Source: Desarmillaria ectypa (lineage: Eukaryota; Basidiomycota; Agaricomycetes; Agaricales; Physalacriaceae). Taken from it: a DNA stretch of 64,000 nt. Numbering within the stretch: the stretch's first letter is position 1; every line of letters starts with the position of its first letter. Location: contig JAUDYN010000007.1 in the NCBI GenBank assembly GCA_030407005.1, positions 2,170,001-2,234,000 of the forward strand, read 5' to 3'. The notes under the pieces were generated by a model. That model had not been told where the DNA came from and did no database searches. It was given only the letters and a program-made list of their open reading frames with translations. Of the stretch, positions 29,550-61,271 are shown one piece after another. A program made the translations under genes and the position numbers.

Positions 29550-29569
29550 CAAGAGGAATTGAACTCTTG
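29550..29569 (-). promoter_or_regulatory. T-arm-like hairpin after gag stop, element A
   Basis: On the minus strand a perfect 6-bp stem CAAGAG/CTCTTG closes the 8-nt loop TTCAATTC, starting exactly 5 nt after the gag TAG (29,577-29,575). Loop and stem fit the tRNA T-arm and B-box pattern. See the finding on this hairpin. Confidence 0.6.
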
Positions 29570-29574
29570 TTGAC

Positions 29575-31835
29575 CTAGTCTTTTGCCTCCTTGATCTTGG
29601 CCATGGGCAGTTCCACTACATTAGTGGGGCCCACTGACTGAATGTCCTTATACTCCCTTCTCTTGGTGCAATCCTTTGCCATATGCCCTTTTTTATTATA
29701 TCTGAAACAGTGACCTTCTGCCTTTCATTGGTCAACTTTCATTGGCTGTCTCAAGCCCCCATACATTGTCTATTGGCTAGTTCCTGAATCCTGATTGGGA
29801 CCAGTGTTGGCCATCAGCTTGGGAGCCGAGGAACTTGTCACTCTAGTGGCAGCTTTGCCACTAGATTGGTGTTGTGGGGGATGAGAGTCTTTTTTCTGTC
29901 CCTCTCTCAGAATGCCAGCCATCTGGTCAAATACCCATTTGTGCTGTCACTCTTCATACATGTGCATAATTTGCTTCTTCCATTCTTGGTAGGTGTGTAG
30001 AATATTAATACCCATATTGGAGATAAAGGTTGTATAGAAGGTTGGTACTCCCAGATAGACAGCCTTCACCAGGGCACCACACTCCTATTCATCACTCCTT
30101 TGACCTGCCAATTTGGCCTCTTCTTCCAGTTTCTGGAAGTAATAGAAGATGGGCTGCATTCCTATATAGAGGTTGAACATCTGTTTTTCATAAACCTCCT
30201 TGATGGCAGGGTCTTAGAACTGGTGGGTGACCATTTCAATGAAATCCTCCCATGAAGAATATTGGAAGTGGACAAGAGTCCCATCATATGCTTCTCCAAC
30301 CCAGAATTCAGGTCTTTTGTAGACTCACCAATCTTTAGTGGCTCTCTCAAAATGAGAAGTCATGAATAGGACCAAGTGTGATGGCAGTTGGAAGTAATGC
30401 CAGAATACTTCAAAATAGATGATACAGTCACCTATGAAGTGTTCAATGTTGTCATGGTCCCTCTTAAATAGTTTTGGGGGTTGTATTAGGATTGGTTTTA
30501 TCCCCATATAAGGGGCATCATTGGGGGCATTTCTGATGAGGTTCAGTAGAGAGTCAGGTGGACCCTTTCTGAGAGGTGGTCTGGGGATCAAAAATTGATC
30601 CAGCCAGTGAGCAGAGTATCCCCTTGGAGGGTCTGTTGGTCTCCTCTGCTCTGGTTCCTTTCCTTTGCTGAGTTTGTATATGTCAATCAGGAGATTTTTC
30701 TCAGCTTCCTCCTTTTCAAGTTCTTTGTGCATCTTCTTGATGCATTGTTCTCTTTTAGCTAGACTGTTTTTAGCCACCTGCTGTTCTTCTGCCATAGGTG
30801 GCAGTGGTCCTTCTGAGGTGGTACTTGATCTGGGATCTTCTCCTGTGCCTGCAAATAGAAGACTGCCACTCTGATAAGGATGATAGCCAGGTTGTCAGGC
30901 CCAACTTATTAGCAGTGAGTCAGATAAGGGTTGTGGCTGTTGAGCCAGAGTGTCAGGAGCATAATGGGGATAATTCATGTATTGGGGCTGAGTGTGTCTC
31001 AGCCCACCATAATAGCCCATGTTATAAGTAAAGCTATCAAAGTTGAACATCAGCCCCATTCTCCTCTGGTCTATTGGCCTTGAGTTGGGCCAGTTCTCAA
31101 AGGGCATAATCCAGCTCCCATTGTTCCTCTAGTGTCTGAGCACATAGCCTGAGTAATAAGTCCTCTAGGGCAGGAGGTATAGCTCCTAAAAGAAGTTGGC
31201 ATGTATATAGGCATAAATAGTGGCACCTGCATTTGGCCCTCAGATTGGATCATCCCTGTTAAGGGCCAACCACTCATCCATGTCTGGATGGATCTGTGGC
31301 CAGTTGCTTCTGGCCTTGATGTCAAGTCATCTGAGTTTCCAGGCAGTGATTCTGAAGGGGCCAAATAGGGTCTGATCAATGTCAGATAGTTTAGGCCACT
31401 CATAATTAGGCCCATCAGGGTTGAAAGGACTTCTGGGAGAGAGAGAAGCAGTCATCAGGAGATGGTGGTTGTCATTGTTGTCATTGTTGGAGAGGGTGAT
31501 GATTGAGAGAGAAGAGGTTGAGTCTGTTCCTTCACTGGGCCAAGATCCCTGCTTTTGGGTGGTGATGGCCTATGGGCTATAGGGATGGGTAGAGGGATGA
31601 TGGGTCAGAGTGTAAGCTGGTGATGGGTCCTCAAATGTAGCCCATATGTTCCTTGCATATTCTTGGGCAAGGGTGGGTCATTCCATCCAGTTGTTTGTAG
31701 AGAAGCCTGAGATTGAGGCCCTCCCTCAGAGAGGAAACTCATCTGAGGAGGACACAAATCAGATACAGAGGCAGGAGAGTTGTTCTTTATCTCCAGTTGC
31801 CAGTCTGGTGGGGGAAGGCCTCCTAGGAAAGACAT
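29575..31835 (-). pseudogene. Element A gag, disrupted
   Basis: Begins MSFLGGLPPPDW at 31,835 and ends at TAG 29,577-29,575. A proline-rich N-terminal part is followed by the conserved MDEWLALNRD region, a coiled-coil stretch (MAEEQQVAKNSLAKREQCI at 30,795), the gag core (DNIEHFIGDCIIYFEVF, HLVLFMTSHFERATKDW) and a damaged zinc knuckle CFRYNKKGHMAKDC in which the second cysteine is now tyrosine. Several stops interrupt it. Confidence 0.85.
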
Positions 31836-31899
31836 GGAGAGGGTGTCAAGGAGGGCAGAGTGGTAGGAGTGGTTGGGGGTGGCAGAGTCACCACTCCTG

Positions 31900-32028
31900 T
31901 TATAGGAGAGTATGGATTTCCTCTTTGTAGGTTAATATGAAAAGGGCAGTAAAGATTATTAGGAGAGCAGCACCACTGATTGCAGTGCTAAGGATGATTG
32001 TTCATTTATTTTCATTTTGTTTGGGCAT
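31900..32028 (-). pseudogene. Element A upstream transmembrane microORF
   Basis: 43 codons starting MPKQNENK with an in-frame TGA as codon 9, followed by TIILSTAIS, then a hydrophobic helix GAALLIIFTALFIL and TYKEEIHTLL. It aligns with the same small ORF in elements B, C, E and F. The TGA replaces an arginine codon (AGA in F), consistent with CGA decay. Confidence 0.6.
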
Positions 32029-32076
32029 GAATTTTGCTACTTTTATAGCTAGCATAGAAGGAGCAGGTGGAGAAAT

Positions 32077-32086
32077 TTCCAACTAA
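32077..32086 (-). other. Self-complementary primer-binding site, element A
   Basis: Directly abuts the 5' LTR. Its 10 nt (TTAGTTGGAA on the minus strand) are the exact reverse complement of the transcript-sense LTR segment at 32,220-32,229, about 33 nt after the TATA box. Confidence 0.7.
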
Positions 32087-32447
32087 TGTTAGGATCTGCT
32101 TTACATATGATCTTGGGATCAGGCACAACTCTTGGGCTGTCTCATGTTCAGACAATCATCTATATAATAGAGCACAGCATAGATCTTTAGAGGAGTGTAG
32201 AAGAGTATATTATTTAAGTTTAGTTGGAAGATAGAGAATATACATGAAATGTATGATACTTATATACTGAAAGAAGAGGAACTAATAATAGTATCATCCA
32301 TGTATTTGTTATACTACTATAGTCAGGTGGTTGGATTGTGGTGACAGCATGAGTGAATCGATAGGGTTATCAATGAACAAGCAATATTCAATGGATAAGA
32401 AGTGATAAGATGCTGGATTAGATAAGAAAAGTGGAAAAATTATAACA
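32087..32447 (-). repeat. Element A 5' LTR
   Basis: TGTTAGGATC to TTATAACA, 361 bp, followed by the GAAGC duplication. In transcript sense TATATAAG precedes TATCTTCCAACTAA by about 33 nt, placing the transcript start at the segment complementary to the primer site. Confidence 0.93.
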
Positions 32448-34520: not shown

Positions 34521-34893
34521 TGTTATGACCCAGTTATCATATGATCTTGGGACTGTATACTGATTCTCAGGCTGTCTCATATTCAGACAATCATCCTTGG
34601 TGAGATAGTGGTTCTAGTCTTCAGAAGAGTGAATAATGGTATAGTGATTTAATTTAGTTGGAAGATGCAGAACATACATGAAAACTACATTACTTATATA
34701 TGGAAATATGATGCATGTGTATGTTTGTGTGATATCCACATATTATGGTCAGATGGTCAAAAGAGGGTGACTTCATGGTGGAAAGAGGGTTCTGAATGTG
34801 ACAGCATGAGTGAATCCAGTAGATGAGTGATGCCAGATGACAAAGAATGATAAGATTCTTGATTAGATTAGGGAAAATGAAAAAATTATAACA
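34521..34893 (-). repeat. Element B 3' LTR
   Basis: TGTTATGACC to TTATAACA. Carries TTAGTTGGAAGAT at 34,654-34,666 (plus-strand reading) complementary to the primer site. Polypurine tract complement TTACCCCCTTGTT follows at 34,894. Confidence 0.93.
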
Positions 34894-34925
34894 TTACCCC
34901 CTTGTTAAAGCAGTTGTCCCAACTG

Positions 34926-37900: not shown

Positions 37901-39635
37901 GCAGATAGACCTTGCAGTCGAGGGTGGATTTTGCATTGAGGACCAGCTCAATAGCATGGTCCCAGGGTTTTCAGGGGGGTAGCTCATCAAAACTGTCCTT
38001 TGAGAACAGATCCCTAAAGCTCTGATACTGAGGAGATACTAGCTCCTCAAATGTTTTCTTTTGCTTTTCTGCATTAGTGGCCATGGCCAGTTCATTTGCA
38101 TGATGAATGGAGCATAAGAGAAGTTCTTGCATATTGACTGTGAGGATGGTGTCTCCCTCCTCAAGTTCTTCATCCCACTGGTCTTCTTCATCAGAGTCGG
38201 AGAGTGGGATAGGGTTTTTTATGCATTGACAATGTGCAAAAATCATCATTCCAGTTTTCCAATTGATAACCAGATTGTGTTGCTTAAGCCAGTCATGGCC
38301 TAAGTATATCATTTTGGAACCTAAGTTAGTTATTGCTAAGTCAATTCATTCAACATGTCCACCAATGGTCATTCAGAGTTCTACGAACTCAGTGACATTA
38401 TCTGCCTTGTTGTGGGTTCCATCTGTATTATACATGAGGATGGAGGTGATGGATTTTTGAGTGTCTAGTTCATGTTCTTGAATATAAGACCAATTGATAG
38501 AGCTGCCAGTGCAGCCACTATCAAGCAATGCTCTGGTAGTCAGGACTTTCTTCCCTGTGCAGGGAGCCAACTGTATGTCCACCAAAAAGTCTCTTCCTGG
38601 GCTTTTGGTTCCTTAGATATACTGAATGGGTTTGTGGAGTTCGTAGAGTTGCTCTTGAGCCTGACTCACTCCAGTCTGTAAGCTCATGGTGAGCTCATTG
38701 GTTATCTCTCTGAGTCATTTAGGGTGTATTCACATGGAGAGAGCTGCTTTGGCAATTGCCAAATTCTTGGCAGTACAGATAGTTCATAGAATCCAGTCAA
38801 CTTTGAAGGGTTTGTACCACATGTGATCAGGTTTTCTCATGACCAGTGGGATTTTGAAAATTGGTATCCCCTTGTTAGGCAGGGTTTTGAGTGTCAGGGT
38901 GTTGGCTTTGGACTGTTTTGTCTGCCATAACAGGAAGGCCATATCATCCTCTTCATTGGGTATTTTGATGATGGTGGTGTTTCTACTGAAGTGCCCCCTT
39001 TTTACCACCTGGGTGCTAGTGGCTTCCCCCACTTCTTCAGCCTGCACTTGCTCAGAAATGCACATAGAGTCAGGAGGATTCTGTGCCCATCTTAATGAGG
39101 CTGGGGTTCCCACACTATCCATCCTAGCAGAGTACTCAGAACTGGGACCAGTCACTAATATGGATGCCATCATCACTGTCAGTTCACCAATTGGTTTCTC
39201 CCAACCAGACTAGATAGCAGGTGGCCCATCAGCTGTCGCCTTCAGCCTTGGTAGGTGCTTGTTTTTCTCCAATAGCCCTGGTGAGACTGGGTTTGGACTT
39301 GGCTTCCTAAATGGAGGCACAGGGGTTTTCAGCTTTAGAGGCCCTAGGGTGTCCCATCTACTCACCCTAGTCTGCAGTTTTACCTGCATATCTGGTGAGT
39401 CTACTGAAGTAGACTTAGTGGACTTTGTGGCAGTGCCAGCACTGCCTGGCAAATCCTGCACCTCATTGGGGGCTTGAGATGAATTTCTATACATAATCAT
39501 ATCAGCATAATCTAAGAGTGTGATGTACCTGTTATTATTTGATTCTTTGGTGATTTTTGGCTTTGGGATGGATGACAGAGGTGTATTTTTATTCAGATAT
39601 AAATGTCTGTATTTGTAGTAATCAGTCTGACCCAT
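34926..39635 (-). pseudogene. Element B pol, disrupted
   Basis: Opens with ATG 39,635 (MGQTDYYKYRHLY), 62 nt after the gag stop, and ends at TAG 34,926-34,928. Protease ALLDSGCTGSSIN (DSG at 38,514-38,522); RT with YLDD at 37,462-37,473; RNase H, integrase (GLPESDSYNVLLVIVDQFSK near 36,200) and a C-terminal module follow. Decay signature: at the RT motif D-R-W-G-Y-N-N-V-R-I the arginines read Q and C here, both single CpG transitions of CGN codons. Confidence 0.9.
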
Positions 39636-39672
39636 GGAAGCCAAGAACTCACTGGTTGAGGCACTGGTTAAG

Positions 39673-39692: not shown

Positions 39693-39697
39693 TCGAC

Positions 39698-42010
39698 CTA
39701 CTCTTTTGCCTTCTCAATTGTGGCCATAGGAGGCACCACTATGTTAGTGGGCCCTACTGATCTGATGTTCCTGTACTCTTTTCTCTTAGGGCATTCCTTT
39801 GCCATGTGACTCTTTTTATTGCATCTAAAGCATCAACCTTCCACTTTTCATCAGTCAACTTCCATTGGCTGTCCCGATCCTCTGTATGTTGTCCATCAGC
39901 CCATACCTGTATCCTGACTGAGACTGGTATTAGCTATCAGCTTTGGGGCTAGGGAACTTATCACCCCAGTGGCAGTTTTGCCATTGGGTTTATGTTGGGG
40001 GCAGGATTCCTTCTTCTGGCCCTCTCTTGGGATTCTGATGGTTTGATTGAATACCCACTTGCATTGATGCTTCTCATACATGTGCATGATCTGCTCTTTC
40101 CATTCTAGATAAGTGTGAGGAATGTTTACACCCATGTTAGAAATGAACATGGTGTAGGAAGAGGGAACACCCAGACAAACTGCCTGAACCATTGCACTAT
40201 GATCATGTTCATCAGCCTAGCATCCAGCCAACTTGGCCTCTTCTTCCAGCTTCTGAAAGTAATAGGAGGCCAGTTGGGTTCCCATGCACAGGTCAAACAT
40301 GTGCTTCTCATAGACTTTCTCAATGGCAGGGTCCCAGAATTGTTGAGAGAGCATTTCGATGAACTTCTCCCACAAGAGGTATCAGAAGTGGGCAGCAGTG
40401 CTATCCCAGGCATCATCAACCCAAAATTCAGGTCTCTTATAGACCCACCAGTCCTTGGCAGCCTCTTCAAAGTGGGAGGTCATGAATAGCACCAGGTGTG
40501 ATAGCACCTGGAAATAGTGTCAAAACACTTCAAAGTAGGTGATGCAATTGCCTACAAAGTATTCAATATCATCATGTTCCCCTTTATATAGCTTTGGGGG
40601 TTGGACAAGTATGGGCTTGATACCCAGATAGAGGGCACTGTCAGAGGCATTTCTAATGGGATTGGGGATTGGATCAGGAGATCCTTTTTCAGGGGGTGGT
40701 CACAGGATCAAATATTGATCTGGTTGAGGAGTGGGATATTCTTTTGGCAGTTCAGTCAGCCTTTCTTGATCTGGTTCCTTACCCTTCTCCTTTTGGAGAT
40801 ATTCTGTCATCTCATTCCTGATAGCTTCTTCCTTTGCTAGCTCCTCACACATGTTGGCAATATGCTGTTCTTTTTTGGCTAGTGTGGCCTTTGTCTATTG
40901 CTGCTGTTCTTTGGCAGCAGTAGATGTGGGTTCTGCAGGGGTGGAGGAACTCACTTCAGGTTCCTCTCCTGTGCCTGCAAATAGAGTACTATCACCCTGA
41001 TAAGAGTGATAGCTGGATTATTAAACTCATGTTGGTGGCAAGTCCAGAAGGGGTTGTGGTAATAGGGCAGGAATATTGGGCAGGTAGTATGGATATGATA
41101 TATTTTGGGACTGGAATGTTTCCAGCCCACTGTAGTAGTCTGTAAAACTACTAAAATCAGGTTCTGTGCCTCATCTACTCCCTTCAATTGGTCTCCCTCC
41201 TCACCAGGTCTTTGAAAGCATGTCCCAGTATGCGCCACTCCTCAGCTGTCCTTGCTCATAGACCTGGGGCCAGGTCTTCAGCTGTGGGTGGGTAAAGCTT
41301 ATGAAATTAGTTTGCCCATATGCAGGCATAAATGTTGGGTCCCAGATTGGGTCCCCATATGAGGTCACCCCTGTTAAGGGCCAACCACTTGTCTATTTCT
41401 GGATGGATTCTGGGCCAAGAGGTTCAGGCTTCCACATCAGCATGTCAAAGCTCCCAGGTGGCAGTCCTGAAGAGGCCAAATAGGCCTCTGTCCACATCAG
41501 ATAACTTGGGCCACTTATAGTCAGCTCCATCAATGTTGAACAGGCAGTCAGCAGTGTAGGGAGTGGTCAGGGCTTTGCTATCAGAGGAGTTGTCATTCTG
41601 GATCTCAATGAGAGGGAGGGAGAAGGAGGAATTTGTTTCTCCACTGGGCTAAGAGCCTTGCTCTTGAGTTTCAATGGCCCAGGGGTCATTGGGATGGGTG
41701 CAGGGATGAGGATCTTAAATCCTGGTATGGTGATTGTGTCCCAGTGTATGGGTGGAATGTGCAGGTGGAGTGTAGGAAGGGGGGGGGGACTCTCATTGCT
41801 AGATCATAGCCTGTATGTTCTATAGATGTTCTAGCATGGGGGAGAAGGGTCATTCCACCCTCTTGTTGATGCCAGTGGAGGACCCATTATGTATCAGGAA
41901 CTCCTCAGAGAAATTCACAAAGTGAGCCCAGAGGCAGGGGAGGTTTTTTTGGACTTCAATGTCCAAACTTGTGGCTGCCACTCAGGTGACTTTGGGTCAG
42001 AGAAGGTCAT
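39698..42010 (-). pseudogene. Element B gag, disrupted
   Basis: From MTFSDPKSPEWQPQ at 42,010 to TAG 39,698. Recognisable parts: LFGLFRTATWELDMLMWKPE, a coiled coil, the gag core around 40,126-40,560 and a zinc knuckle near 39,800-39,845. Interrupted by stops. Confidence 0.8.
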
Positions 42011-47100: not shown

Positions 47101-48830
47101 TTTTCATCCAGGAACTTGTTGAGTTGTTCTTGTTCAATTTGATTCAAAGGATAGACTTTACAGTCTAAGGTGGATTTAATGTTGGGTATCAATTTGATGG
47201 CATGGTCCCATGGCTTTCACTCAGGTAGTTTGTCAAAGCTTTCCTTTGAGAACAAGTCTCAAAAGCTTTAATACTGAGAGAATACTAGCTTCTCAAAGGT
47301 TTTCTTAGGTTTCTCAGTGTGAGCAGCTGCCACTAGGTCATTGGCATGGTGTATAGACTGAATCACCATTTCCTCCTATATATTGATGGTGAGGATAGTT
47401 TTGCCATCCTCTAGTTCTTTGTCCCATTTGTCTTCATCATCTGCATCAGGAAGAGGAATGGGATTTTTTATGCATTGATAGTATCTAAAGATTATTTTTC
47501 CAGTTTCCCAGTTGATGGTTGGGTTGTGGCACTTTAGCCAGTCATGGCCTAAATAGATTGCCTTGGACCCTAAGTCAGTGACTGTGAGGTCAATTCATTC
47601 CGTATGCCCACCTATTGTCATTCTGAATTCAGTAATATTACTGGCTTTATTATAGGTTCCATCTGCATTATATACAAGGATTGGGGCAGTGGCTTGTCAG
47701 GTGTCTAGGCCATAGTCATAGATGTAGGCATGGTTAATTGAACTGCCAGTATAGCCACTATTGAGTAGGGATCTGATAGTGAGGATCTTCTTCCCCATAC
47801 ATGAGGTGATCTGTACATTGACCATGAAGTCTCTTTCAGAACTCTTGATGCCACAGATATATTGGATAGGTTTCCATAATTTGTAGAGATGCTTGTGGAC
47901 ATTATCTCCTTCATACTGTAAGCTTTTTATGAGCTCATCAGTGATTTCTCCAAGTTGTTTGGGATGAACTCAGATAGGGAGGACAGCTTTGGCAATAGTC
48001 ATGATCTTGGCTGTTCAGATAGTGCATAGAATCCAATCTACTCTGAATGGTTTGTACCAGTGCTGGTTAGGAACCTTCTTGTTAGGTTGTGCTTCAGGTT
48101 TAGGGGTCAGGAATTTTTTTTCTTGTTGCATCTTCTAGAGGAGGAAAGCTATGTCATCTTCTTCATCAGATATCTTAATGATAGTAACCTTCTGCCTCCT
48201 TTTTACCATCTGAGCACTAGAAGATTCTACCTGTTCTTTGGCTTTCTTGTCATCTGATGGAGTGTTAGTGCCTGATGGAGGAATAGAGAAATTTGGGTCA
48301 TATTCCTTGCAGGTGCTATTCTCCATATCAAAGGGTTGATCAAGGACAGTGGGGTTGTCTCAGGTTGTTGGTGCCAACAGTTCAGGCTTCCCCTTTTCCT
48401 GCAGGTCATATGACTCACTCCTCCTGGGGTTGCCAACTCAGAAAATGGCCACTCTTGAGATATCATCAAGAGATCTCATTATTGTTTGGCCTTGGTAGGT
48501 GCTTGAAGTATCCTCCACTGACCCTGGCAAAGCATAACTTGACCCCTCTAGGGTGCTGAGATGTTTGGCTTCAGAAGCCCAAAGGCATCTCATCAACTTG
48601 TCTCATTCCTGGGCATAGCCCATATTACAATGCCAGCACCACCTGGCAAATCCTGCACTTCATTGGAGGCTCAGGATTTGGTATAGATCATTGTGTTATC
48701 ACATGTCATTAACTTGTGATATCAGTTTTTTGATTCTTTCAGTGGGTCTGTGATAAAAGCAGAAAAAACAGAGTCATATTAGAGATTGCATACAGGTATA
48801 GATTATTCTACAAATAAATAAGACCATCCA
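44168..48830 (-). pseudogene. Element C pol, disrupted
   Basis: Ends TPKDES at TAG 44,168-44,170; the 5' border is approximate because the start codon context has decayed. RT box YLDD intact at 46,724-46,735; RNase H (SNGAIGAVLSQNQNDKWRP, 46,133-46,348); integrase 45,000-45,560; a GPY/F-like region near 44,760. Interrupted by many stops. Confidence 0.88.
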
Positions 48831-48894: not shown

Positions 48895-51160
48895 CTATGC
48901 TTTTACCTCCTTGATCTTGGCATCACTCTTTTCTTCTTCCTTGGTGACTGCCACCAATTGAATGTCTCTGTACTCCTTCTTTTTTGGATAATCCTTTGTC
49001 ATATGCCTCTTCTCATTGCAGTGGAAGCATTGTCCTTCCATCTTTCATCAATCAACTTCCATAGATTGATCTGATCCTCTGTATGTTGTCCATCAACCTG
49101 TAGATGTGTTCTATCCAGAACCCATGCTGGTTGCTGATTTTAAGGCCATCAAACTTATCACCTCAGCAGATTGCTTGCCACTAGAGTGTAGTTAGGGTCG
49201 CAACCCATTCTTCTTGACATTGTCATGAGAGATGCTAGAGGTCTGATCAAAGACCTACTTTCACTGATATTCCTCATACATTTGGAGGATTCTCTCTTTC
49301 CACTCTGGGTAAGTTCAGGGAATATTGATGCTCATATTAGAAATGAATGTGGTATATGAAGAGGGAACTCCAATTCACATGGCTTTCACCATTGTGCCAC
49401 ACTCACTCTTGTCAGTTTATCATCTGGCTAGTTTAGCCTCTTTTTTCAGTTTCTGGAAGTAGTGGCTGGCCAGTTGAGTTCCTATTTAGAGATCAAACAT
49501 TTTCTTCTCATGTATCTCCTCAATCACAGGATCCTGGAATTGTTACATAACTAGCTCAACAAATTCTTTCCAACTCAGGTACTAGAAATGAGTGGCGACT
49601 CTAGTGAGGTCATTCATTATTCAGTATTCAGATCGCTTGTAAACCCACCAATCTTTAGCAGGGCCTTTGAAATAGAATGTTATAAATAAGATGAGATGAG
49701 ATAGTAATTGAAAGTAATGTTGGAAGACTTCAAAGTAGATGATACAATTGCCTATAAACTATTCAATATCATCATAGTCACCTTTGAATGATTTTAGTGG
49801 CTGAATGAGAATGGGCTTGATACCCAAGTAGGAGGCCTCATTAGATGCATTCCCAACAGAGTTTGGGTATGGGTCCAGAGGAGCTTGTCCTGAGGGTGGT
49901 CATGGAATTGAATACCAATCTGGTTGGGGAACAGGTTTTTTCAGGGGTTCCCATAGTTGGCCTCATTCTGACTGTTTTCCTTTGTTTGGGAGCTGCCAGA
50001 ATGCAGTGTGTAAATCTCAGGCCCCCTCTGCTTCTTCTAGTTCTTGATGAAGCTTTATTATCCACTGTTCCTTTTCAGCCAATTGGTCCTTGGCTAATTG
50101 CATTTGTTCTTCAATCATTGGTTGTGTGGGTTCTGCAGAACCTGAACTCAGTCCAGAATCTTCTCTCACACCTGCAAATAGAAGGCTTCCTTTCTGATAG
50201 GGATAAAAGTCTGATCAGTGAAGTTGACTTGCCAGTGGGGAGTTGGGAAGGAATCAGGATTGGTGGATTGGCATGTTGGAGGGGTAGTTCAGGTAAGGCA
50301 TGTATTGGGGCTGGAATGTTTCCAGTCTGGCATAAAATCCAGTATTGTAGGTAAAATTATCAAAATTAGGCCTCCCTCCCATTGAGGTCTGGCCTGTCAC
50401 TCTCCCTTTGGGCTAGTATCCAAAGGGCATATTCCAACTCCTACTGCTCATCTGCAATTCTTGCTCATAACCTAGATATTCTAGCCCTTGCAGATAGGGG
50501 GTATAGTTTTCAGTTCTAGTTTGCATAAATTTGGGCATGTATGATGGCACTGGCCCTGGGCCCTCTAATTGGTTCCTCTCAGTTGAGGGTGAGGTATTCA
50601 TCCATGTCAGGACAAATCCTGAGCCATGCTATTCTGGTCTTGATATCCCTTCTTTGAAGCTCCCATACTTTGCTTCAGAAGAGACTAAGGAGGGCTCATT
50701 CAGTATTTGAGAGATCTGGCCACTTGAAGTCAGGCCCCTCAGCATTGAGGGGAGTGGCTGGAGGTGGGGGGTCACTGGAAATATCAATAAGGGGAAGGGA
50801 GAATGTGGAGTCACTTCTCTCTCCAGTATTGGGCCAAGATTCTCACTTCTGAGTGGTGGTCCAGAGACTGTATGAGTAGTTGGGATGGAGTAAACCCATC
50901 CCAGAGTCATTTGTGTGTTGTATCCATGCACAAGCTAGGCAGACAGAGGTGTACAGAGGGGAGGAGTTGCTGGGGGTTCAGAATCTAGCCTGTAGATCCC
51001 ATGCATATTCCTCTGTAGTGGAGGGTCATTCCAGCCTGTGCTGGGTGTGTTGATCAGTCTCTCAGCATATGGGGAACTCATTGGAAGATTGTGGGATGAA
51101 TATGATATGGTGGTGGGGGAGGCCTTCCTCCTGAGAGGATGCCAAATCTGTGAGATTCAT
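48895..51160 (-). pseudogene. Element C gag, disrupted
   Basis: Ends at TAG 48,895; start is taken at ATG 51,160 by position and is uncertain. Proline-rich N-terminal part, coiled coil near 50,050, gag core about 49,500-49,830 and a zinc-knuckle remnant near 49,000 are recognisable. Broken by stops and frameshifts. Confidence 0.75.
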
Positions 51161-51235
51161 CCTGGCAGAGATTGGTCTCTGAGAGAGGACATAGTAAAAT
51201 AAAAAAGATGGGGGTCTTTGTGGTCACAAGATCTG

Positions 51236-51370: not shown

Positions 51371-51399
51371 GCAATTTGTCTCTTCACAGCTGGCAGTGA

Positions 51400-51412
51400 A
51401 TCTTTCAACTAA
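51400..51412 (-). other. Self-complementary primer-binding site, element C
   Basis: Thirteen nt (TTAGTTGAAAGAT on the minus strand) complementary to the LTR segment at 43,836-43,848; one base separates it from the 5' LTR. The copy in the 5' LTR itself has one mismatch. Confidence 0.7.
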
Positions 51413-51413
51413 T

Positions 51414-51836
51414 TGTTAGACTCATAGTCTATATAATCTGCAGATATGCATAATCCAAAGGGCTGTTTCACATTCAGACAGTCATCCTAAGATTATGACT
51501 ATAGTCTTCTAATCTTAGTGTGGAGAATGTGTGGTATGAAGAAACTTTAGTTGACAGATAGGGAGTGTACAGTGTAAACTACCCAGCTTATATACTAGAA
51601 GAAATCTAAATATATGTCCATAACCATGAGATATCCATGTAAGATACAAAAAAATGGTGTGCTTATTGTGTGAGTATGATGAGGTTATTGTGCAGCATTA
51701 CAACAGGTAGCTATGAGTATTGGAGGCTTGATTGATGGATAAGAGATTAGATAAGAGGGCTGATAAGATAGCTGAGTGGATAAGATAGAGGATCAGATAA
51801 GATAAGATAAGATAAAAAAATAGCAAAATCATAACA
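51414..51836 (-). repeat. Element C 5' LTR
   Basis: 423 bp, TGTTAGACTC to ATCATAACA, followed by AGTTT. Ten bp shorter than its partner, mainly in the GATAAGATAA repeat. Confidence 0.92.
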
Positions 51837-53681: not shown

Positions 53682-55415
53682 ATGGACGAGTGGCTGGCCC
53701 TCAACAGAGGGGACCCCATTCAAGTCCCAATAAGGCTGATATTGTCACCGCCTGGATTCACACCAACCGTGACCAGAGCATATTCTGCCCCTCTGCAGGG
53801 GATCTATTTCCAGGGCTTCGGCCCTGAGATCCAGAGGAGCAGCGGGAATTGGAGAGAACCCTCCAACACTTATGGAGGCTGGAGGTGGCAAGAGAGGAGT
53901 GATTGGGGGCAAAGGGCCCCATACGATACTTTAACCTATGATACAGGTTATTATGGCAGGCTGGACTACCACCAGCCCCGATATGAAATATATCCAGATC
54001 ACCCACCAGATACACTGGTCGCAAACCCACGACCACTTCCTGACTTGCCCCCACATCACTGGGTGCATCACCAAGAATACCATCCTTATCAGGGTGGTAG
54101 TCTTCTCTTCACAGGGGCGGGAGAAGAAATGGAAGCCGAAGGAGTCCCTGCAGGAAACACCACTGCAGGGACATCAAGAACTCCTGCTATGGCAGAGGAA
54201 ATCCATCAACAGACAAAAACTGCATTGATGGAGAAGGAGCAGTGCATAGCAGAAATGCGTGAAGAACTTGACAGGGAGGAGTCTGCCCGCAAAATGATGA
54301 CAGACTACCTCCAGGATCAAGAAAAGGGGAAGGAGCTGGAGAGGGGAAGACTGTCGGGTGAGCTGTCAAGAGGCTACCTGGGTCCAAGGCCAGATCAATA
54401 TTCGATCCCAAGACCACTCCCTGATGAGGGTCCTCCCGACCCTATCCCAAATCCTGTCAGACATGCCACCAATGATGCCCCCTATTTGGGCATCAAACTA
54501 ACTCTTGTCAAGGTCCCCGCCCCATTCAAAGGGGATCATGATGACATCGAACACTTCATAGGTGATTGCATTGCCTATTTTGAAGTGTTCTATCACTATT
54601 TCCAGGTGCCGTCGCACCTGGTACTATTCGTGACATCCCACTTTGAGGGCGCCACCAAGGACTGGTGGGTCTACAAGAGACCTGAATACTGGGTTGGTGA
54701 TGCCTTTGATGGCACTGCCACCCACTTCAGATACCCTGACTGGGCTGACTTCGTTGACCTAGTCACACGACAATTTTGGGATCCCACCATCAAGGAGATC
54801 CATGAAAAGCACATGTTCGACTTGCGCATGGGAGCACAGCCCACCTCTCATTATTTCCAGAAGCTTGAGGAAGAAGCCAAGCTAGCGGGCCAAAGGACCG
54901 ATGAAGCCGAACGCGGCACAATGGTGAAGGCGGTGAGACTGGGAGTTCCCAGTTCTTACATGACCTTTATATCCAACATGGGCATGAACATTCCACGTTC
55001 ATATCTGGAATGGAAGGAATGCATCCTCCAGATACATGAAGAGAGACAGTGGAAGTGGGTCTTTGATCAGACCATCAGTACGCCTTGGGACGGCCAGAAG
55101 CAGGGCCAGCATCCCCAACAACAGCAGCCCAGTGGCAAAAACACCACTGGGGCGACAAGTTCCTCAGCCACAAAGCTGACTGCTGGCAGGAACACCAGTC
55201 ACGATGCTGGAACTGGTAAGTGGATGACATACAGAGGGGCGGGAAAGCCCATGGACCTAGACTGGCAACGAGCCAAGGGACGCTGTTTCAGATGCAATGA
55301 GAAAGGACATCTGAGCAGGAACTGCCCTATGAAAGAGAAGAATGTGGTGCGATATGTGGAGCCCACTGACACAGTGGTGCCGAGCGCCTCCAAGGTTGAG
55401 GAGGTAAAAGAGTAG
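53682..55415 (+). CDS. Element E gag, main intact ORF
   Basis: 577 codons from ATG 53,682 (MDEWLALNRGDPIQ) to TAG 55,415. Order: Pro/Tyr-rich region (about 1-150); coiled coil from MAEEIHQQTKTALMEKEQC (about 170-225); retrotransposon gag core (about 285-450) with DDIEHFIGDCIAYFEVFYHY, then HLVLFVTSHFEGATKDWW and QFWDPTIKEIHEKHM; a Gln/Ser/Thr-rich linker; and the CCHC zinc knuckle CFRCNEKGHLSRNC at about 535-548, which packages RNA. It is the only intact long ORF of the retroelement block. The genuine gag probably begins further upstream (see the frameshifted N-terminal part). Confidence 0.88.
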   Translation: MDEWLALNRGDPIQVPIRLILSPPGFTPTVTRAYSAPLQGIYFQGFGPEIQRSSGNWREPSNTYGGWRWQERSDWGQRAPYDTLTYDTGYYGRLDYHQPRYEIYPDHPPDTLVANPRPLPDLPPHHWVHHQEYHPYQGGSLLFTGAGEEMEAEGVPAGNTTAGTSRTPAMAEEIHQQTKTALMEKEQCIAEMREELDREESARKMMTDYLQDQEKGKELERGRLSGELSRGYLGPRPDQYSIPRPLPDEGPPDPIPNPVRHATNDAPYLGIKLTLVKVPAPFKGDHDDIEHFIGDCIAYFEVFYHYFQVPSHLVLFVTSHFEGATKDWWVYKRPEYWVGDAFDGTATHFRYPDWADFVDLVTRQFWDPTIKEIHEKHMFDLRMGAQPTSHYFQKLEEEAKLAGQRTDEAERGTMVKAVRLGVPSSYMTFISNMGMNIPRSYLEWKECILQIHEERQWKWVFDQTISTPWDGQKQGQHPQQQQPSGKNTTGATSSSATKLTAGRNTSHDAGTGKWMTYRGAGKPMDLDWQRAKGRCFRCNEKGHLSRNCPMKEKNVVRYVEPTDTVVPSASKVEEVKE

Positions 55416-55420
55416 GGTGT

Positions 55421-55440
55421 CAAGGGTTCAATTCCCCTTG
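55421..55440 (+). promoter_or_regulatory. T-arm-like hairpin after gag stop, element E
   Basis: Perfect 6-bp stem CAAGGG/CCCTTG with loop TTCAATTC, beginning 5 nt after the gag TAG (55,413-55,415). Compared with A and C the fifth stem pair changed from A-T to G-C on both sides. Confidence 0.65.
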
Positions 55441-55925
55441 CTTGCCCAAATCTCAAGGTGTGTCCTCGGTTTCCACAGGTTGGACTGATTACTATGAAAA
55501 CAGACTATTACATATGAAAACGAATATATCTATGACTTCACAGAAGCTGAAGACCAAAAAGAATCAACAAACAAAAACAGGTATGTCATCCTTCTAGAAG
55601 ACGCTGACACAAGTATCTGTAGTGACAAATCCTGAACCTCCAATGGACTGGGGCGGGACTTGCCAGATGGTGCTGGCACTGCGACAAAGTCCAATGAGCT
55701 GAGCTCACCGGATACGCCGCTGAGTGCTCAGCGATGGGCAGGGACCAGTAGGTGGGACTCCCTTGGTGTCCCAGTACCCTCCTCGAGTGGAGGGGCAAGC
55801 CCACCAGTTTTGCCAGGGTCAGCGGAGGACCAGGAAAGTGCCTCTAACCAAGGCCAGGACCGATGCCCCAGACAAACCGGTCCGGGGAGTAGAAAACCTG
55901 ATGAGGCTGAGTATCAAACCAGACT
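55441..55925 (+). pseudogene. Element E pol N-terminal fragment
   Basis: The conserved pol start (GQTDYYKY in B) reads GLITMK here after a lost ATG (about 55,475). NRYVILLEDADTSI and then LPDGAGTATKSNELSSPDT match the pol N-terminal region of F (NRYVILLKEADMKI, STATKSNELSSPDM). Protease, RT and the rest are absent. Confidence 0.75.
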
Positions 55926-58900
55926 GGTGAGTCACAGGATCATGGTTGAGGGATTTCTCGATCCCTTGGTCCCATTGGCTCTTTTGTCAGGTTGCATCTC
56001 TTATATGCGTAATTTGTTCTTCAGTGGTGGACAATATTAATGCCCAGAAATGTTCAGGGGAGAGGACGACTATGTCTTCATTGTCTTCTTTTCCTTGATC
56101 ATGATCATCTTGTCGGCTGAGGAGATCTGCCTTCTTGTTAGCGATTCCAGCTTTGTGTTGAAGGACAAAGTGGTATTTGGCTAATTCTGTGACCCACCAA
56201 GCTTGTCAGTGATTCAGCTTCTGAGACTTTCAGAAGTATTGAAGATTTTGATGATCTGTCCAGATCTCAATAGTCTCTTTTGCACCCATGAGGTAATGGC
56301 ACCACTCTTCCAGAGCTAGCATGATAGCTAGCAATTTCTTGTCATAGATCTTGTAGTTGCATTCAGTGACTGTTAATGCTTTTGATATGAAAGCGACAGG
56401 CCTCCATTTGCCATTCTGTTCTTGGCTTAAAACAGCACCGATGGCTCTGTCACTGGCATCGGCCTCTACTCAGAATTTTCCATCATCCAAGGGAATCATT
56501 ACAACTACATTCATTGTCATCAACTTCTTGAGTTGTGTGAATGCCTGTTCCTGGTCTGGTCCCCATGTCCAGTCTACCTTTCTGGTTAACTGGTTAAGGG
56601 GTCATATGATCTTGGAATAATCGCAGATGAATTTGCGATAGAAATTCATGAATCCTAGGAATGATTGGAGTTCCTTTTTCTTCATAGGAGTGGGCCATTC
56701 CGCGATTCCTGCGATTTTGACTGGATCCATGCGAATAGCATCTTTGCTGATGATTACTCTTAAGTATTTGGTTTTGAATACTTCGAACTCGCATTTTTCT
56801 GCTTTGAGAAATAACTTGTTTTCTTGTAGGCATTGTAATACTTGTCGGACAATGATTCAATGTTTGGACAAGGATTTCATAAAGATGAGGATATCATCAA
56901 GATAGATTGTGACTTTTCCTCTGGTGATCAAATCTTTAAAGATGTCGTTCATCATCCACTGGAATGTGGCTGGTGAATTGGTAAGGCCAAAGAACATGAC
57001 TGTAGGCTCAAAGAGCCCTCAGTTGATTCTGAATGCAGCCTTTTCTTCATCTCCATCTTGGATGCATACATTGTTATATCCCCATCTAATGTCCAGCTTG
57101 GAGAAGTACTTTGCTCCACATAGCTTGTCGATGAGTTCAGAGATCAAGGGAAGTGGATATCGATTCTTGATCATCATTTTGTTCAGTTTTCAGTAATCCT
57201 GAACAGGTCATAGTGAGCCATCCTTTTTCTTGACAAAGAAGAAAGGAGAGGCAAAAGGGGATTTGGAAGGTTGGATCCTTTCTGAGTCGAGATTTTCATC
57301 TAGGAACTTGTTGAGCTGTTCCTGTTCATTTTGGTTGAGTGGATAGACTTTACAGTCTAATGTGGATTTCACATTGGGAGTTAGCTCGATGGTGTGGTCC
57401 CAGGGTCTTCGTTCTGGTAAATTGTCAAAGCTTTCTTTTGAGAATAAATCCCTAAAGCTTTGATACTGAGGAAGCATGAGCTCCTCAAAAGTTTGTTTTG
57501 GTTTTTCTGCATTTGCGGCTGCCGCCAGTTCATTTGCATGATGGACCACTCGAAGAATGATTTCTTCTTGCATATTGACTGCAAGAATACTTTTGCCTTC
57601 TTCTAATTCTTCATCCCACCTGTCTTCTTCATCGGAATCAGGGAGAGTAAAATGGGTTTTTATGCAATAACATCATCCGAATATCATGGTTCCCACTTTC
57701 CAGTTGACAAAGAGATTGTGGTGTTTAAGTCAGTCATGTCTCAAGTACACTGTTATGGAGCCTAGGTCTGTGACCACAAGGTCAATTCATTTGACATGGT
57801 CTCCAATGATCATTCAGAGTTCCATGAATTCTGTTACATTGCCTGCCTTGTTATGGGTTCCATCTGTATTGTATACAGGTATGGGAGAGGTGGCTTTTTG
57901 GGTATCCAACTGGTGTTGTTGGATGTAGGTTTGATTAATAGAACTGCCTGTGCAGCCACTATCCAACAATGCTCAGGTTGTCAATGTCTTCTTTCCTGTA
58001 CAAGGAGAGAGTTGGATATCCACCAAGAAGTCTTATCCTGAGCTCTTGGTTCTGTGGATATACTGAATTGGTTCATGAAGTTCATAGAGCTGCTTGCATG
58101 CAAGACTCTCTTTGGTGTTTAAGCTCTGAATGAGCTTATCGGTTATCTCTCCAAGTCTTTTGGGATGAACTCAAGTGGAGAGAATGGCTTTGGTGACTGC
58201 CAAGTTCTTGGAACTGCAAATGGCGCACAGAGTCCAGTTGATCCCAAATGGTTTGTACCATATGTGATCATGTGCCCCTGTAATCGGCAGGACTTTGAAT
58301 TTTGGTACCCCCTTGTTAGGCATGATTTCGGGTTTTGATGCCTCCGGGATTGGCAGGACTTTGGTTTGGGACTGTTTTGTTTGCCACAGTTTAAAGGCAG
58401 TGTCATCTTCTTCATCAGGTACTTCAACGATGGTGGTAATTCTGTTACCATGCCCCCTTTTTACCACCTGGGCACTAGTGGCTTCCCCCTATTCTTTGGC
58501 TTGAGTCTGCTCAGAGACTTGAACAATTCTGAGAGAGGATTGAACTCAGCTTGAGGCTTCTGAGGTTCCACTTCTACTATCAGTTCCAGCAGAGTACTGA
58601 GCTTTCACATCCAGGGCAAATCTAATCAGCATTGCCTGCAGCTCCACTACCAGCTGTTCTCCCACTGGTCCAGATAGTGCATGGCCCCGATCCTGGACTT
58701 GGTGAAAGGCGCTCTCCTGGTCCCCCACCAACCCTGGCAAGGTTGTTGGACTTGGCCCTCTGTTCGAGGAGTACACTGAGGTGTTCAGACTTCTGGGAGG
58801 CCTGAAGAAGTCCTGCCTACTACCCTCTGTCCACGGCTGATCACTCAGCAGCATATCTGGTGAGCTGAGCTCATTGGACTTCGTGGCAGTGCTAGCACCA

Positions 58901-59034
58901 CCTGGCAAATCCTGCACCTCATCGGGGGTTTGGGATTTACTGTAGATCTTCATGTCAGCTTCTTTTAGGAGTATGACATACCTGTTTGTTGTCGATTCTT
59001 TGGAGGTCTTTGGCTTCAGGGTCTGTGAAGTCAT
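55926..59034 (-). pseudogene. Element F pol, truncated (N-terminal region, protease, RT, RNase H)
   Basis: Begins near 59,034 (NRYVILLKEADMKIYSKSQT just inside), with an earlier start possible. The protease region lies at about 57,800-58,060; RT has an intact YLDD at 56,893-56,904; FFFVKKKDGSL at 57,208-57,240; RNase H is readable in broken frames at 56,220-56,480. It ends at the fusion with E. Stops and frameshifts are present. Confidence 0.85.
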
Positions 59035-59131
59035 AGAGGATATATTTGTATTTGTTCATAATTGTCTATGGTTATAGTAATTAGTCCAACCCACAGAAGC
59101 CTAGGACTCACCTTCAAGAGACTTGGTTGAG

Positions 59132-59151
59132 CAAGGGGAATCAAACTCTTG
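59132..59151 (-). promoter_or_regulatory. T-arm-like hairpin after gag stop, element F
   Basis: Stem CAAGAG/CCCTTG with one A-C mismatch, loop TTTGATTC, 5 nt after the gag TAG at 59,159-59,157. Confidence 0.55.
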
Positions 59152-59156
59152 TCAAC

Positions 59157-61271
59157 CTACTCTTTTGCCTCTTCGATTTTAGTTGTAGGCGGTACCACTT
59201 TGTTAGTGGGCCCTACTGACCAAATGTCCCTCATCTCTTTTCTCTTGGGGCAATCCTTGCTCAGATGACCTTTCTTGTTGCACCTGAAGCATCTGCCCTC
59301 AGCTCATCACCGATCGATGTCCATGGGCTTCCCTGCCCCTCCATATGTCATCCACCTACCAGTTCCAGCATCCTGACTGACCCCCATATTAGCAGTTGGC
59401 TTTGGAGCTGAGGAACTTGTCACCCCAGCAGCAGCCTTGCCGCTGGGGTGCTGTTGGGGTTGGGGATGGGAATCCTTCTTCTGCCCATCCTGGGGCATGC
59501 CAGTGGTCTGGTCGAAGACCCACTTGCATTGTCACTCCTCATACATTCAGAGGATGCACTCCTTCCATTCTGGATAAGAGCATGGGATGTTGATGTTTGA
59601 AATGAAGGTCATATAGGAGGAAGGTACTCCTAGATGAATGGCCTTCACTATGGCACCATGCTCATTCTTGTCGGTTCATCGGCCTGCTAACTTGGCTTCT
59701 TCTTTTAGCTTCTGAAAGTAATGGGATGTGGGCTGCATTCTCATTCAGAGGTCAAACATCTGCTTTTCATGGATTTTCTTGATGGTGGGATCTCAGAATT
59801 GTCGAGAGACTATATTGATGAAATCTGCCCAGTCGGGATAGCAGAAGTGAGCAGTGGTCCCATCATAGGAGTCGCCAACCTAGATTTTGGGTCTCTTGTA
59901 GACCCACCAGTCCTTGGCAGCCCCCTTGAAGTGGGAGGTCATGAATAGTACCAAGTGTGATGGTACCTGGAAGTAGTGTCAGAACACCTCAAAGTAGATG
60001 ATGCAATCGCCTATAAAGCATTCAATATCGTCATGGTCCCCTTTGAATGGGGAAGGGACCTTGATGAGAGTGGGTTTGATGCCCAGATATGGGGCATCGG
60101 TGGCAGCATTCCCAACTGGGTTGGGGATCGGGTCAGAGGGTCCTTTGCCGGGGGGTGGTCTTGGGATTGAATATTGATCCGGCCTTGGCCCTGGGTAGCC
60201 TCTTGGTGGCTCCAAGGGTCTTCCCCTATCTGGCTCTTTCCCCTTCTCCTAGTCTTGGAGGTAGTCCATCATCATCCTTCTGGCAAACTCCTCTCTTTTG
60301 AGCTCTTCACACATCTCTGTAATGTGCTTCTCCTTCTTGGCCAATGTGGTTTTCACCTGTTGCTGAATTTCTTCTGCCATGGCTGGGGTTCTTGATGCCC
60401 CTGCAGTGGCAGAACCTGCAGGGATGGTTTCGGCTTCTATGTCTTCTCCCATGCCTGCAAAGAGAAGACTACCACTCTGGTAAGGGTGGTAACCTTGTTG
60501 ACATGCCTGACTATGTCATGGTGAGTCAGGCATGGGTCTGGGTCTTGTGACTGGGGTGTCTGGTTAGTAGTCCGGGATTGTCTCATATTGGGGCTGGTGG
60601 TATCCCAGCCCACTGTAGTAACCTGTATCATAGGTAAATGTATTGTATTCGGGCCCTTGGCCTCATCTATTCTTCTCTTGTGACCTCCAGTCACCATAGC
60701 TGTTGTAGGGAGCATTCCAGCGGCCAGAGTTGGGGCATCGAGCTCCCCATCAGACTTGTTGGAGAGTTCGATAATGGGGAGGGAGGATGTGGAGTTGGTC
60801 CCTCTTTGAGGCCAGTTGTTTTCATGGGCCCAGGGCCAATAAGAGTGGTTTCGATCCATACTGGGATCGTCGCGGTGTCAGGGTCCATTGTAGGACCCAT
60901 TGGACTTGCTAGAGTCGTCAGGGGAGGGAGAGCGTGAGTGGGGAGGTATCTGCCAATTGTGCAGGTGGAGGGTGGGGGTTGCGGAATGAGGGGGAGGACC
61001 AGTGTATGGGGTGGGGTGTCATCAATCTCAGCCTGAACATGCCATGTGTATTCCTGGGCCAGGGTGGGGGTGGGTCATTCCATCTGGTACTGGAGTAGAA
61101 CTGCCCTTGCATTGTGTGCATGGGCATTGGAGGGCCCTGGGGTCTGGGGCCTCTCATCATCGGTTGTCCTCTCAGAGGAGGAGGCAATCGTGAAGCAGGC
61201 TCGGGAGTGGACGAGTGGTATTGCCTCTTGTTCTCCCAGTCTGGTGGGGGGTAGCTCTCAGGGAAGGACAT
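59157..61271 (-). pseudogene. Element F gag, disrupted
   Basis: From MSFPESYPPPDWENKRQYHS at 61,271 to TAG 59,157. Parts align with gag of E: the proline-rich N-terminus, MDRNHSYWPWAHE (60,859), coiled coil MAEEIQQQVKTTLAKKEKHI (about 60,380), core DDIECFIGDCIIYFEVF (about 60,000) and a zinc knuckle near 59,260-59,300. Interrupted by a few stops and frameshifts. An overlapping frame from ATG 61,349 (MRKTSEPSSTKGEP) also leads into it, as in E. Confidence 0.82.

What the first reader, a model, noticed from the sequence alone, without database searches (positions are those of the whole stretch)
29550..59159. Conserved T-arm-like hairpin exactly 5 nt after the gag stop in all five elements
Elements A, B, C, E and F all place a hairpin of 6-bp stem and 8-nt loop 5 nt after the gag TAG. 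Loops are TTCAATTC (A, B, E), TTTGATTC (F) and CTTGATTC (C), close to the tRNA T-loop/B-box pattern TTCRANNC. Stem pair five is A-T in A and C, G-C in E, and A-C (intermediate) in B and F: a compensatory change. It is non-coding for gag and lies before the pol ATG. It could be a recoding or termination-reinitiation signal, a tRNA mimic, or an RNA-processing site.
Basis: partly seen in the sequence, partly recalled or inferred. Interest (0 to 1): 0.75.

Follow-up and report, generated by a model that had tools for sequence, protein, structure and literature searches.

The report
Frameshift pseudoknot joining gag to pol
The hairpin after the gag stop looks like the visible half of an RNA pseudoknot that makes some ribosomes slip back one base just before the stop, so that a mushroom-forming fungus's jumping gene can make its Gag and Pol proteins fused from one message.

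Summary
In 179 genomic copies it belongs to a 12-bp stem with one bulged base, whose outer half starts at the G of the gag TAG. The stem is not in a non-coding spacer: it lies inside the pol frame, which is -1 to gag and, in one copy, open for 1604 codons with reverse transcriptase, RNase H, integrase and chromodomain. Before it stands A_AAA_GNN_UAG (A_AAA in 177 of 179). The loop core UCGAUUC is the exact complement of GAAUCGA about 120 nt downstream, present with its CpG-decayed forms in 153 of 179. Best reading: a -1 frameshift signal with a long-range pseudoknot (spacer 5, stems 12 and 7, loops 1 and ~120), close to the published HCoV-229E geometry (5/12/7/1/164; PMC3835772) and, for slip site and stop, to pea enation mosaic virus. 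The T-arm likeness is probably coincidental. No frameshifting was measured.

The parts
29581..29584 (-). element A: candidate slip tetramer A_AAA (gag codons GCA AAA GAC TAG)
   Evidence: read directly; A_AAA at this place in 177 of 179 copies
29543..29575 (-). element A: stem 1 (12-bp bulged hairpin, partly decayed) from the G of the gag TAG
29416..29422 (-). element A: GAATCAA, proposed 3' strand of pseudoknot stem 2
   Evidence: 5 of 7 pairs with its own decayed loop (inspection)
39704..39707 (-). element B: candidate slip tetramer A_AAA
39666..39698 (-). element B: stem 1 (decayed; folds no better than many shuffles)
39539..39545 (-). element B: GAATCAA, proposed stem 2 strand (5 of 7 pairs with its own loop, inspection)
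48901..48904 (-). element C: candidate slip tetramer A_AAA
48863..48895 (-). element C: stem 1
48730..48736 (-). element C: GAATCAA, proposed stem 2 strand (7 of 7 pairs with its loop, inspection)
53682..55415 (+). element E: gag ORF (577 aa) with CCHC knuckle, ending in TAG
55406..55409 (+). element E: candidate slip tetramer A_AAA (GTA AAA GAG TAG)
55415..55447 (+). element E: stem 1
55561..55567 (+). element E: GAATCAA, proposed stem 2 strand (5 of 7 pairs with its own loop, inspection)
59163..59166 (-). element F: candidate slip tetramer A_AAA
59125..59157 (-). element F: stem 1
58992..58998 (-). element F: GAATCGA, proposed stem 2 strand (7 of 7 pairs with its loop, one G-U, inspection)
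58546..59055 (-). element F: open stretch of the pol (-1) frame containing the NRYVILL motif

Best explanation
It is a programmed -1 ribosomal frameshift signal between gag and pol of a Ty3-type chromovirus family. Shown by sequence: gag ends in NNA AAA GNN UAG; pol lies in the -1 frame and is open through the hairpin in well-kept copies; a 12-bp stem with one bulged base starts at the G of the UAG, 5 nt (GNNUA) after the A_AAA tetramer; the loop core UCGAUUC is the exact complement of GAAUCGA, found mostly 111-126 nt past the stem. Inferred: the ribosome meets this pseudoknot with lysine codon AAA in its decoding centre, the lysine tRNA slips back from AAA to the overlapping AAA, and translation goes on in the -1 frame (AGN NUA GGN CGN CAA...), past the gag stop, giving a Gag-Pol fusion; other ribosomes stop at UAG and give Gag. 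The stem 2 pairing is inferred from complementarity and conservation, without covariation.
For: Frame: in 129 of 137 copies with a recognisable pol N-terminal motif (of 179) it lies in the -1 frame. First downstream stop is at or beyond 158 nt in 99 of 179 copies in the -1 frame, 4 of 179 in the gag frame, 3 of 179 in +1. Between offsets 36 and 110 the -1 frame holds 31 stops (26 copies), gag 150 (112), +1 433 (157); the length from offset 35 to 89 is in phase in 174 of 179. One copy (L187, the pol side of L056) has its -1 frame open for 1604 codons, against 71 stops in the gag frame and 82 in +1, with RVT_1, RNase H, integrase and Chromo domains. Need for a shift: in all 7 copies with gag open 300 nt upstream and the -1 frame open to the end of the fetched locus, the -1 frame is closed upstream at -46 (6) or -16 (1). 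Slip site: A_AAA at -7 in 177 of 179; the next most frequent in-frame Z_ZZN tetramer occurs in 22; its two gag third positions have 0 substitutions against 9-55 at the other 33 A/T third positions; 345 of 363 genome-wide hairpin matches have AAAAGNN before the TAG. Stem 1: 85 of 179 keep all 12 pairs, 133 keep 11 or more; transversions per site 0.94 vs 3.34 in gag and 5.59 just downstream; pair 4-32 is T-A 135, G-C 39, C-G 1, T-G 1, unpaired 3; of 11 genome pattern hits with C at column 4, 10 have G at 32; three shared-branch changes vs 0.13 expected, p about 5e-4. The 5' partners (columns 4, 7) are synonymous third positions of Gly and Arg codons in the pol frame while the 3' partners (32, 29) change the amino acid. 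Stem 2: GAAT(CG|TG|CA)A in 153 of 179, 141 of 153 in pol phase; 1 of 3000 random patterns of that type reaches 153; third positions 145 and 148 have 1 substitution each, where 64 of 71 pol third positions have 5 or more.
Against: No frameshifting was measured. A_AAA_GNN is not the canonical X_XXY_YYZ heptamer; only the lysine tRNA can re-pair. An R-scape-like test with a tree null found no significant stem pair (4-32 rank 10 of 54285, E 1.3; 7-29 rank 170, E 100). In the branch test 7-29 is not significant (p 0.11-0.13), pairs 2-34, 3-33, 5-31, 6-30, 8-27, 12-23 and 13-22 show no excess, and 3 of 10 off-pair controls (4-7, 7-32, 7-31) also co-change, so part of the 4-32 signal may be one long subfamily branch. 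In the 179 copies C at column 4 faces G once and A twice. All substitutions together are only slightly fewer in the stem-loop than in gag (16.3 vs 19.8 per site); the deficit is in transversions. Stem 2 has no covariation, only 81 of 153 copies form all 7 pairs, and three other pol third positions (46, 73, 256) are as quiet as its own without an explanation. Only 44 of 179 copies keep the whole cassette by my criteria; I take the rest as dead, CpG-decayed copies. Codon-position bias is absent between offsets 36 and 110, so that stretch is at most a weakly constrained linker.
Confidence: 0.85

Rival explanations
1. Termination-reinitiation or internal initiation: ribosomes stop at the gag UAG, the hairpin helps to hold or recruit them, and Pol starts at an ATG about 116 nt downstream (MTSP...).
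For: Pol would need no fusion; an in-frame ATG is present in several young copies; codon-position bias appears only downstream of offset 110.
Against: The stretch before the ATG is kept open and in phase with pol (174 of 179 in phase; 31 vs 150 and 433 stops), which reinitiation does not need; two copies with both frames open differ in having that ATG (L062 lacks it, L056 has it); A_AAA upstream of the stop would have no role.
Confidence: 0.07
2. Read-through of the gag UAG stimulated by the hairpin, as in murine leukaemia virus.
For: UAG followed by a structure a few nt on; TAG kept in 176 of 179.
Against: Pol is in the -1 frame, and the gag frame is closed soon after the stop (175 of 179 have a further stop before 158 nt; 71 stops in L187).
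Confidence: 0.02
3. tRNA T-arm mimic, RNA-processing site or Pol III B-box: the loop and its closing pairs (GGTTCGATTCC) match the B-box consensus (recalled), bringing in tRNA-binding or processing proteins or TFIIIC.
For: Loop letters TTCRATTC; 19 of 19 fetched host tRNA genes have GTTCRA in the T-arm.
Against: 12-bp bulged stem and 8-nt loop; no tRNA found, no tRNA family listed by Rfam; the position at the end of gag in the right frame, A_AAA and the downstream complement of the loop are left unexplained.
Confidence: 0.03
4. Ribosome bypassing (hopping) or splicing across the gag stop.
For: Conserved stem-loops or inverted repeats at gag/pol boundaries have been discussed for sireviruses, in one paper for a bypass (PMC2829016 passage; PMC5009743 passage).
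Against: The -1 frame is open through the hairpin itself in well-kept copies, so nothing needs to be skipped. A splice donor at GTAAAAG is not kept: many copies read GCAAAAG.
Confidence: 0.03

Closest known systems
HCoV-229E -1 frameshift pseudoknot as listed in Table 1 of PMC3835772 (table section read)
   Same: Spacer 5, stem 1 of 12 bp, stem 2 of 7 bp, loop 1 of 1 nt, no loop 3, and a very long loop 2 (164 nt there; 105-141, median 120, in 152 copies here).
   Different: Slip site UUUAAAC there, A_AAA_GNN here; one bulged base in stem 1 and a stop codon built into its base here; retrotransposon versus coronavirus, so convergent.
Pea enation mosaic virus RNA2 -1 frameshift element (PMC4737148, passages and section 22 read)
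   Same: A non-heptamer slip site where only the A-site tRNA fully re-pairs, lying 3 nt before an amber stop, 5-nt spacer, UAG at the base of the stimulating stem, long-range pairing.
   Different: G_GAU_UUU versus A_AAA; PEMV's structure is larger and its long-range partner is a 3'-terminal hairpin; there the other two stop codons worked as well, so the G that closes the stem was judged unimportant.
Sirevirus (plant Ty1/copia) gag-end stem-loop (PMC5009743 and PMC2829016 passages)
   Same: Retrotransposon; conserved covarying 11-bp stem with separate gag and pol frames.
   Different: Pol is in the +1 frame, 4-nt loop, mechanism unsolved; a different superfamily.
Candida Tca2 gag-UGA-pol junction (PMC2194720, abstract read)
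   Same: Fungal LTR element with a potential pseudoknot 3' of the gag stop.
   Different: Described as gag and pol separated by a UGA, with stop-codon bypass as the question; its junction did not direct read-through in S. cerevisiae.
Potato virus M AAAAUGA shift (cited in PMC4737148; PMC5009743 advises caution)
   Same: Single-tRNA slip on AAAA.
   Different: The stop follows AAAA directly; no pseudoknot was mentioned in the passages I saw.

Membership tests
Programmed -1 ribosomal frameshift signal | downstream ORF in the -1 frame overlapping the upstream ORF | tested here: met
   129 of 137 copies; 1604 codons open in L187; -1 frame open back to -46 or -16 in 7 of 7 copies with both frames open
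Programmed -1 ribosomal frameshift signal | canonical heptamer X_XXY_YYZ | tested here: not met
   2 of 179 copies have any in-frame heptamer between -46 and +2, at differing places
Programmed -1 ribosomal frameshift signal | minimal Z_ZZN tetramer (PMC5009743 passage; PMC4066793 abstract, on E. coli) | tested here: met
   A_AAA at -7 in 177 of 179
Programmed -1 ribosomal frameshift signal | stable structure about 5-9 nt after the slip site | tested here: met
   stem 1 starts 5 nt after A_AAA; -16.8 to -21.9 kcal/mol in three well-paired copies, 0 of 200 shuffles as good
Programmed -1 ribosomal frameshift signal | measured frameshift product | not testable with these tools
   no expression data
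H-type pseudoknot with long stem 1 | loop of stem 1 pairs with a downstream strand | tested here: inconclusive
   exact 7-nt complement, conserved and quiet at two synonymous sites, but no covariation
Ty3 chromovirus | RT - RNase H - integrase - chromodomain order | tested here: met
   Pfam on four pieces of the L187 pol frame: RVT_1, RT_RNaseH, Integrase_H2C2, SH3_Tf2-1 and Chromo over their cut-offs; rve below its cut-off (21.3 of 32.6 bits); nothing in the first 400 aa
tRNA-like T-arm | 5-bp stem with 7-nt T-loop (recalled) | tested here: not met
   12-bp bulged stem, 8-nt loop
Stop-codon read-through signal | pol in the same frame as gag | tested here: not met

The most novel reading that the evidence does not exclude
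A fungal Ty3 chromovirus family has converged on a coronavirus-type long-range frameshift pseudoknot (5/12/7/1/~120), but drives it with a one-tRNA A_AAA slip and builds the gag UAG into the base of stem 1, so that termination and frameshifting share one RNA device. The hundreds of copies in one genome (463 pattern matches with up to 2 mismatches) would form a natural mutational library of it.
Probability: 0.6. Interest if true: 0.72.

Novelty: new variant of a known kind. Interest (0 to 1): 0.63.

Why it matters
I saw no account of how Agaricomycete Ty3 elements express Pol in the listings of eight literature searches (of the listed papers I opened seven, in part). This gives a testable signal, present in hundreds of copies, with an unusual one-tRNA slip site and a stop codon inside the stimulating stem. 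[quoted passage not shown] It also warns that gene models in such fungi may cover a frameshift with an invented intron.

Tried and rejected
Variable pol frame: from element E alone I first thought that pol's frame relative to gag varied, which would have meant reinitiation; one search showed that E is degraded and that 129 of 137 copies share the -1 frame. tRNA mimic and RNase P or Z processing: rejected for shape and because the loop has a downstream complement. Splicing: rejected because the GT of GTAAAAG is not kept. Read-through: rejected by frame. Covariation: my R-scape-like test (own script, not R-scape) gave no significant stem pair; kept in the report as evidence against. Other structure within 210 nt: RNAalifold on 88 sequences found only stem 1 (these came from the 133 copies already having 11 or more pairs, so the call tests for further structure, not for stem 1). 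Cross-species DNA: a scan of viral contigs found no relative; protein searches gave proteins, where named of Armillaria, and no DNA.

Selections: of 206 listed hit rows I left out 5 (the window's own), 6 short second pieces and 6 repeats before merging. Alignment A1 used 50 of the 73 diverse fetched copies listed; I left out 23 with shifted bulges or poorer pairing, so A1 and the model R1 lean towards paired copies. The counts I rely on use all 179. The genome searches return only the best hits per query, so the 179 copies are not a random sample; pattern searches gave whole counts but listed only the first 100 or so places.


Full report
Setting. The window is base 2,170,001-2,234,000 of contig C30 of a 40.6-Mb, 32-contig genome. 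Elements A, B, C and F lie on the minus strand and E on the plus strand.

The observation. To test them I searched the host genome with about 500 nt around each hairpin (206 rows listed). Leaving out 5 rows for the window's own copies, 6 short second pieces and 6 repeats, 189 rows merged to 174 loci, which were fetched and joined by the five window copies: 179 in all. No copy has a gap in the 36 hairpin columns; TAG is kept in 176, with TAA in 2 and CAG in 1.

The stem is longer than reported. Counting from the T of TAG as 0, columns 2-7 pair with 29-34 and columns 8-13 with 22-27; column 28 is bulged (C 146, T 29, G 3, A 1). Young copies read TA[GGGCGT][CAAGGG]TTCGATTC[CCCTTG]C[ACGCCC]A. Copies paired, of 179: 177, 170, 176, 152, 147 and 151 for the outer six pairs; 167, 178, 179, 174, 147 and 174 for the inner six. 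85 copies keep all 12 pairs and 133 keep at least 11. A well-paired young copy folds at -21.9 kcal/mol (z -5.7, 0 of 200 shuffles as good). On 88 varied sequences, taken from those 133, over 292 columns the consensus fold contains this stem and nothing else.

Covariation, told both ways. Pair 4-32 is T-A in 135, G-C in 39 and C-G in 1; pair 7-29 is A-T in 100, T-A in 29 and C-G in 19. A genome pattern search for A or C at column 4 gave 13 hits: 11 with C, of which 10 have G at column 32, and 2 with A, both opposite C; among the 179 aligned copies, however, C at column 4 faces G once and A twice. So GGT/ACC, GGG/CCC and GGC/GCC all occur. In the pol frame column 4 is the third base of a Gly codon and column 7 the third base of an Arg codon, both synonymous, while partners 32 and 29 change the amino acid; coding alone does not explain that. 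Against this: a G-test with an APC correction and a tree-based null (own script) gave no significant stem pair (4-32: E 1.3; 7-29: E 100). A branch test supports 4-32 (3 shared branches vs 0.13, p about 5e-4) but not 7-29 (p 0.11-0.13) and no other pair tested, and 3 of 10 off-pair controls (4-7, 7-32, 7-31) also co-change.

The hairpin is coding, in the other frame. In 137 of 179 copies a pol N-terminal motif could be recognised; [quoted passage not shown] The -1 frame has its first stop at or beyond 158 nt in 99 of 179 copies against 4 in the gag frame and 3 in +1; 42 copies have a stop at offset 5, where TGA could come from decay of a CGA. Between offsets 36 and 110 the -1 frame has 31 stops (26 copies) against 150 (112) and 433 (157), and the distance from 35 to 89 is in phase in 174 of 179. 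Codon-position bias is clear in gag and from offset 110 on, absent between 36 and 110, as in a loose linker. In one copy the -1 frame runs from the G of TAG for 1604 codons, while gag and +1 frames have 71 and 82 stops; its pieces match RVT_1, RNase H, Integrase_H2C2, a Tf2-1 SH3 domain and Chromo, with rve below its cut-off. In all 7 copies with gag open for 300 nt upstream and the -1 frame open to the end of the locus, the -1 frame is closed upstream at -46 (6) or -16 (1). A shift into the -1 frame just before the gag stop is therefore required for a fusion.

Where the shift happens. Between -46 and +2 only one in-frame slippery tetramer is general: A_AAA at -7, in 177 of 179; the next is AAAG at -34 in 22; an X_XXY_YYZ heptamer is present in 2 of 179. 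AAAAG (columns -7 to -3) has no substitution on internal branches and 6 at tips; its two synonymous gag positions have 0 substitutions while the other 33 A/T third positions in gag have 9-55. In pattern searches that do not use the alignment, 345 of 363 hairpin matches in the genome have AAAAGNN before the TAG; reversed patterns give 0. The order is NNA AAA GNN UAG, so the stem starts 5 nt after A_AAA.

Constraint on the stem. Transversions per site are 0.94 in the stem-loop against 3.34 in gag, 5.59 between 36 and 110 and 3.96 beyond; all substitutions together differ little (16.3 vs 19.8 in gag), because CpG-type transitions go on in the stem as elsewhere.

The loop has a partner. The loop core TCGATTC is the exact complement of GAATCGA. 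GAATCGA or its CpG-decayed forms (GAATCAA, GAATTGA) occur in 153 of 179 copies, 141 of 153 in pol phase. Of 3000 random 7-mers of the same type 1 reaches 153 copies (its count, 163, is that of a pattern overlapping the same site); of 120 permuted patterns one ranks higher (163), and it overlaps the same site. The distance from the stem is 111-126 nt in 146 of 152 copies (range 105-141, median 120). The third positions at offsets 145 and 148 around this site have 1 substitution each, where 64 of 71 pol third positions have 5 or more; but positions 46, 73 and 256 are equally quiet. With the actual, decayed letters 81 of 153 form 7 pairs, 36 form 6 and 36 form 5. There is no covariation in this stem, so it is inferred.

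How it most likely works. Inference: the ribosome meets stem 1 with AAA in the decoding site, the lysine tRNA slips to the overlapping AAA, and decoding continues AGN NUA GGN CGN CAA GGN, through the stem, into Pol. Ribosomes that do not slip read one more codon and stop at the UAG. This gives much Gag and some Gag-Pol from one RNA, the usual need of retroelements (established knowledge).

Compared with what is known. Table 1 of PMC3835772 (table section read) gives HCoV-229E spacer 5, stems 12 and 7, loops 1, 164 and 0; here it is 5, 12 (with a bulge), 7, 1, about 120 and 0. PMC4737148 (passages and section 22) describes PEMV: slip site G_GAU_UUU 3 nt before the amber stop with only the A-site tRNA re-pairing fully, a 5-nt spacer, and a stop at the base of the structure whose replacement by a sense codon cut frameshifting by 72% in vitro, while the other two stop codons worked as well. 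PMC5009743 (passages) gives Z_ZZN as the minimal site for nearly all -1 shifts, and describes the sirevirus stem, whose pol is in +1. Potato virus M's AAAA is cited as a P-site slip in PMC4737148, while PMC5009743 advises caution. Eight answered literature searches listed nothing that I recognised as such a signal in a basidiomycete retrotransposon; I judged most papers by title and start of abstract, and one survey of fungal chromoviruses (PMC2864245) does not contain the words frameshift or stop codon in its main text. Subscription papers are mostly not in that library.

Verdict. I file it as a new variant of a known kind: the geometry is known from RNA viruses, while the combination with a one-tRNA A_AAA slip and an embedded gag stop in a fungal chromovirus was not found in the searches named above.

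Noticed in passing
offsets 46-50 and 70-75 after the gag TAG in the 179 copies (in element E about 55459-55463 and 55483-55488): Third positions 46 and 73 have no substitutions at all and several neighbours are very quiet; there may be a small GTCC/GGAC hairpin inside the long pseudoknot loop, but the consensus fold did not show it.
   Followed up: partly
protein P0007 (Armillaria ostoyae ARMOST_07498): Annotated as one 986-aa protein joining a Gag C-terminus (SKVEE) to a Pol N-terminal region (EVPDEEDD): perhaps a gene model with an invented intron over a gag/pol frame change.
   Followed up: partly
   Followed up: no
window 24379-32314, 34523-42556, 43702-51828: Candidate LTR pairs of elements A, B and C are about 93%, 90% and 87-88% identical over the 181-300 nt compared, so these are old copies.
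   Followed up: no
window 19326-20174 (+): 282-aa ORF with a sub-threshold Ribonuclease III-like match (31.5 bits, cut-off 35).
   Followed up: no
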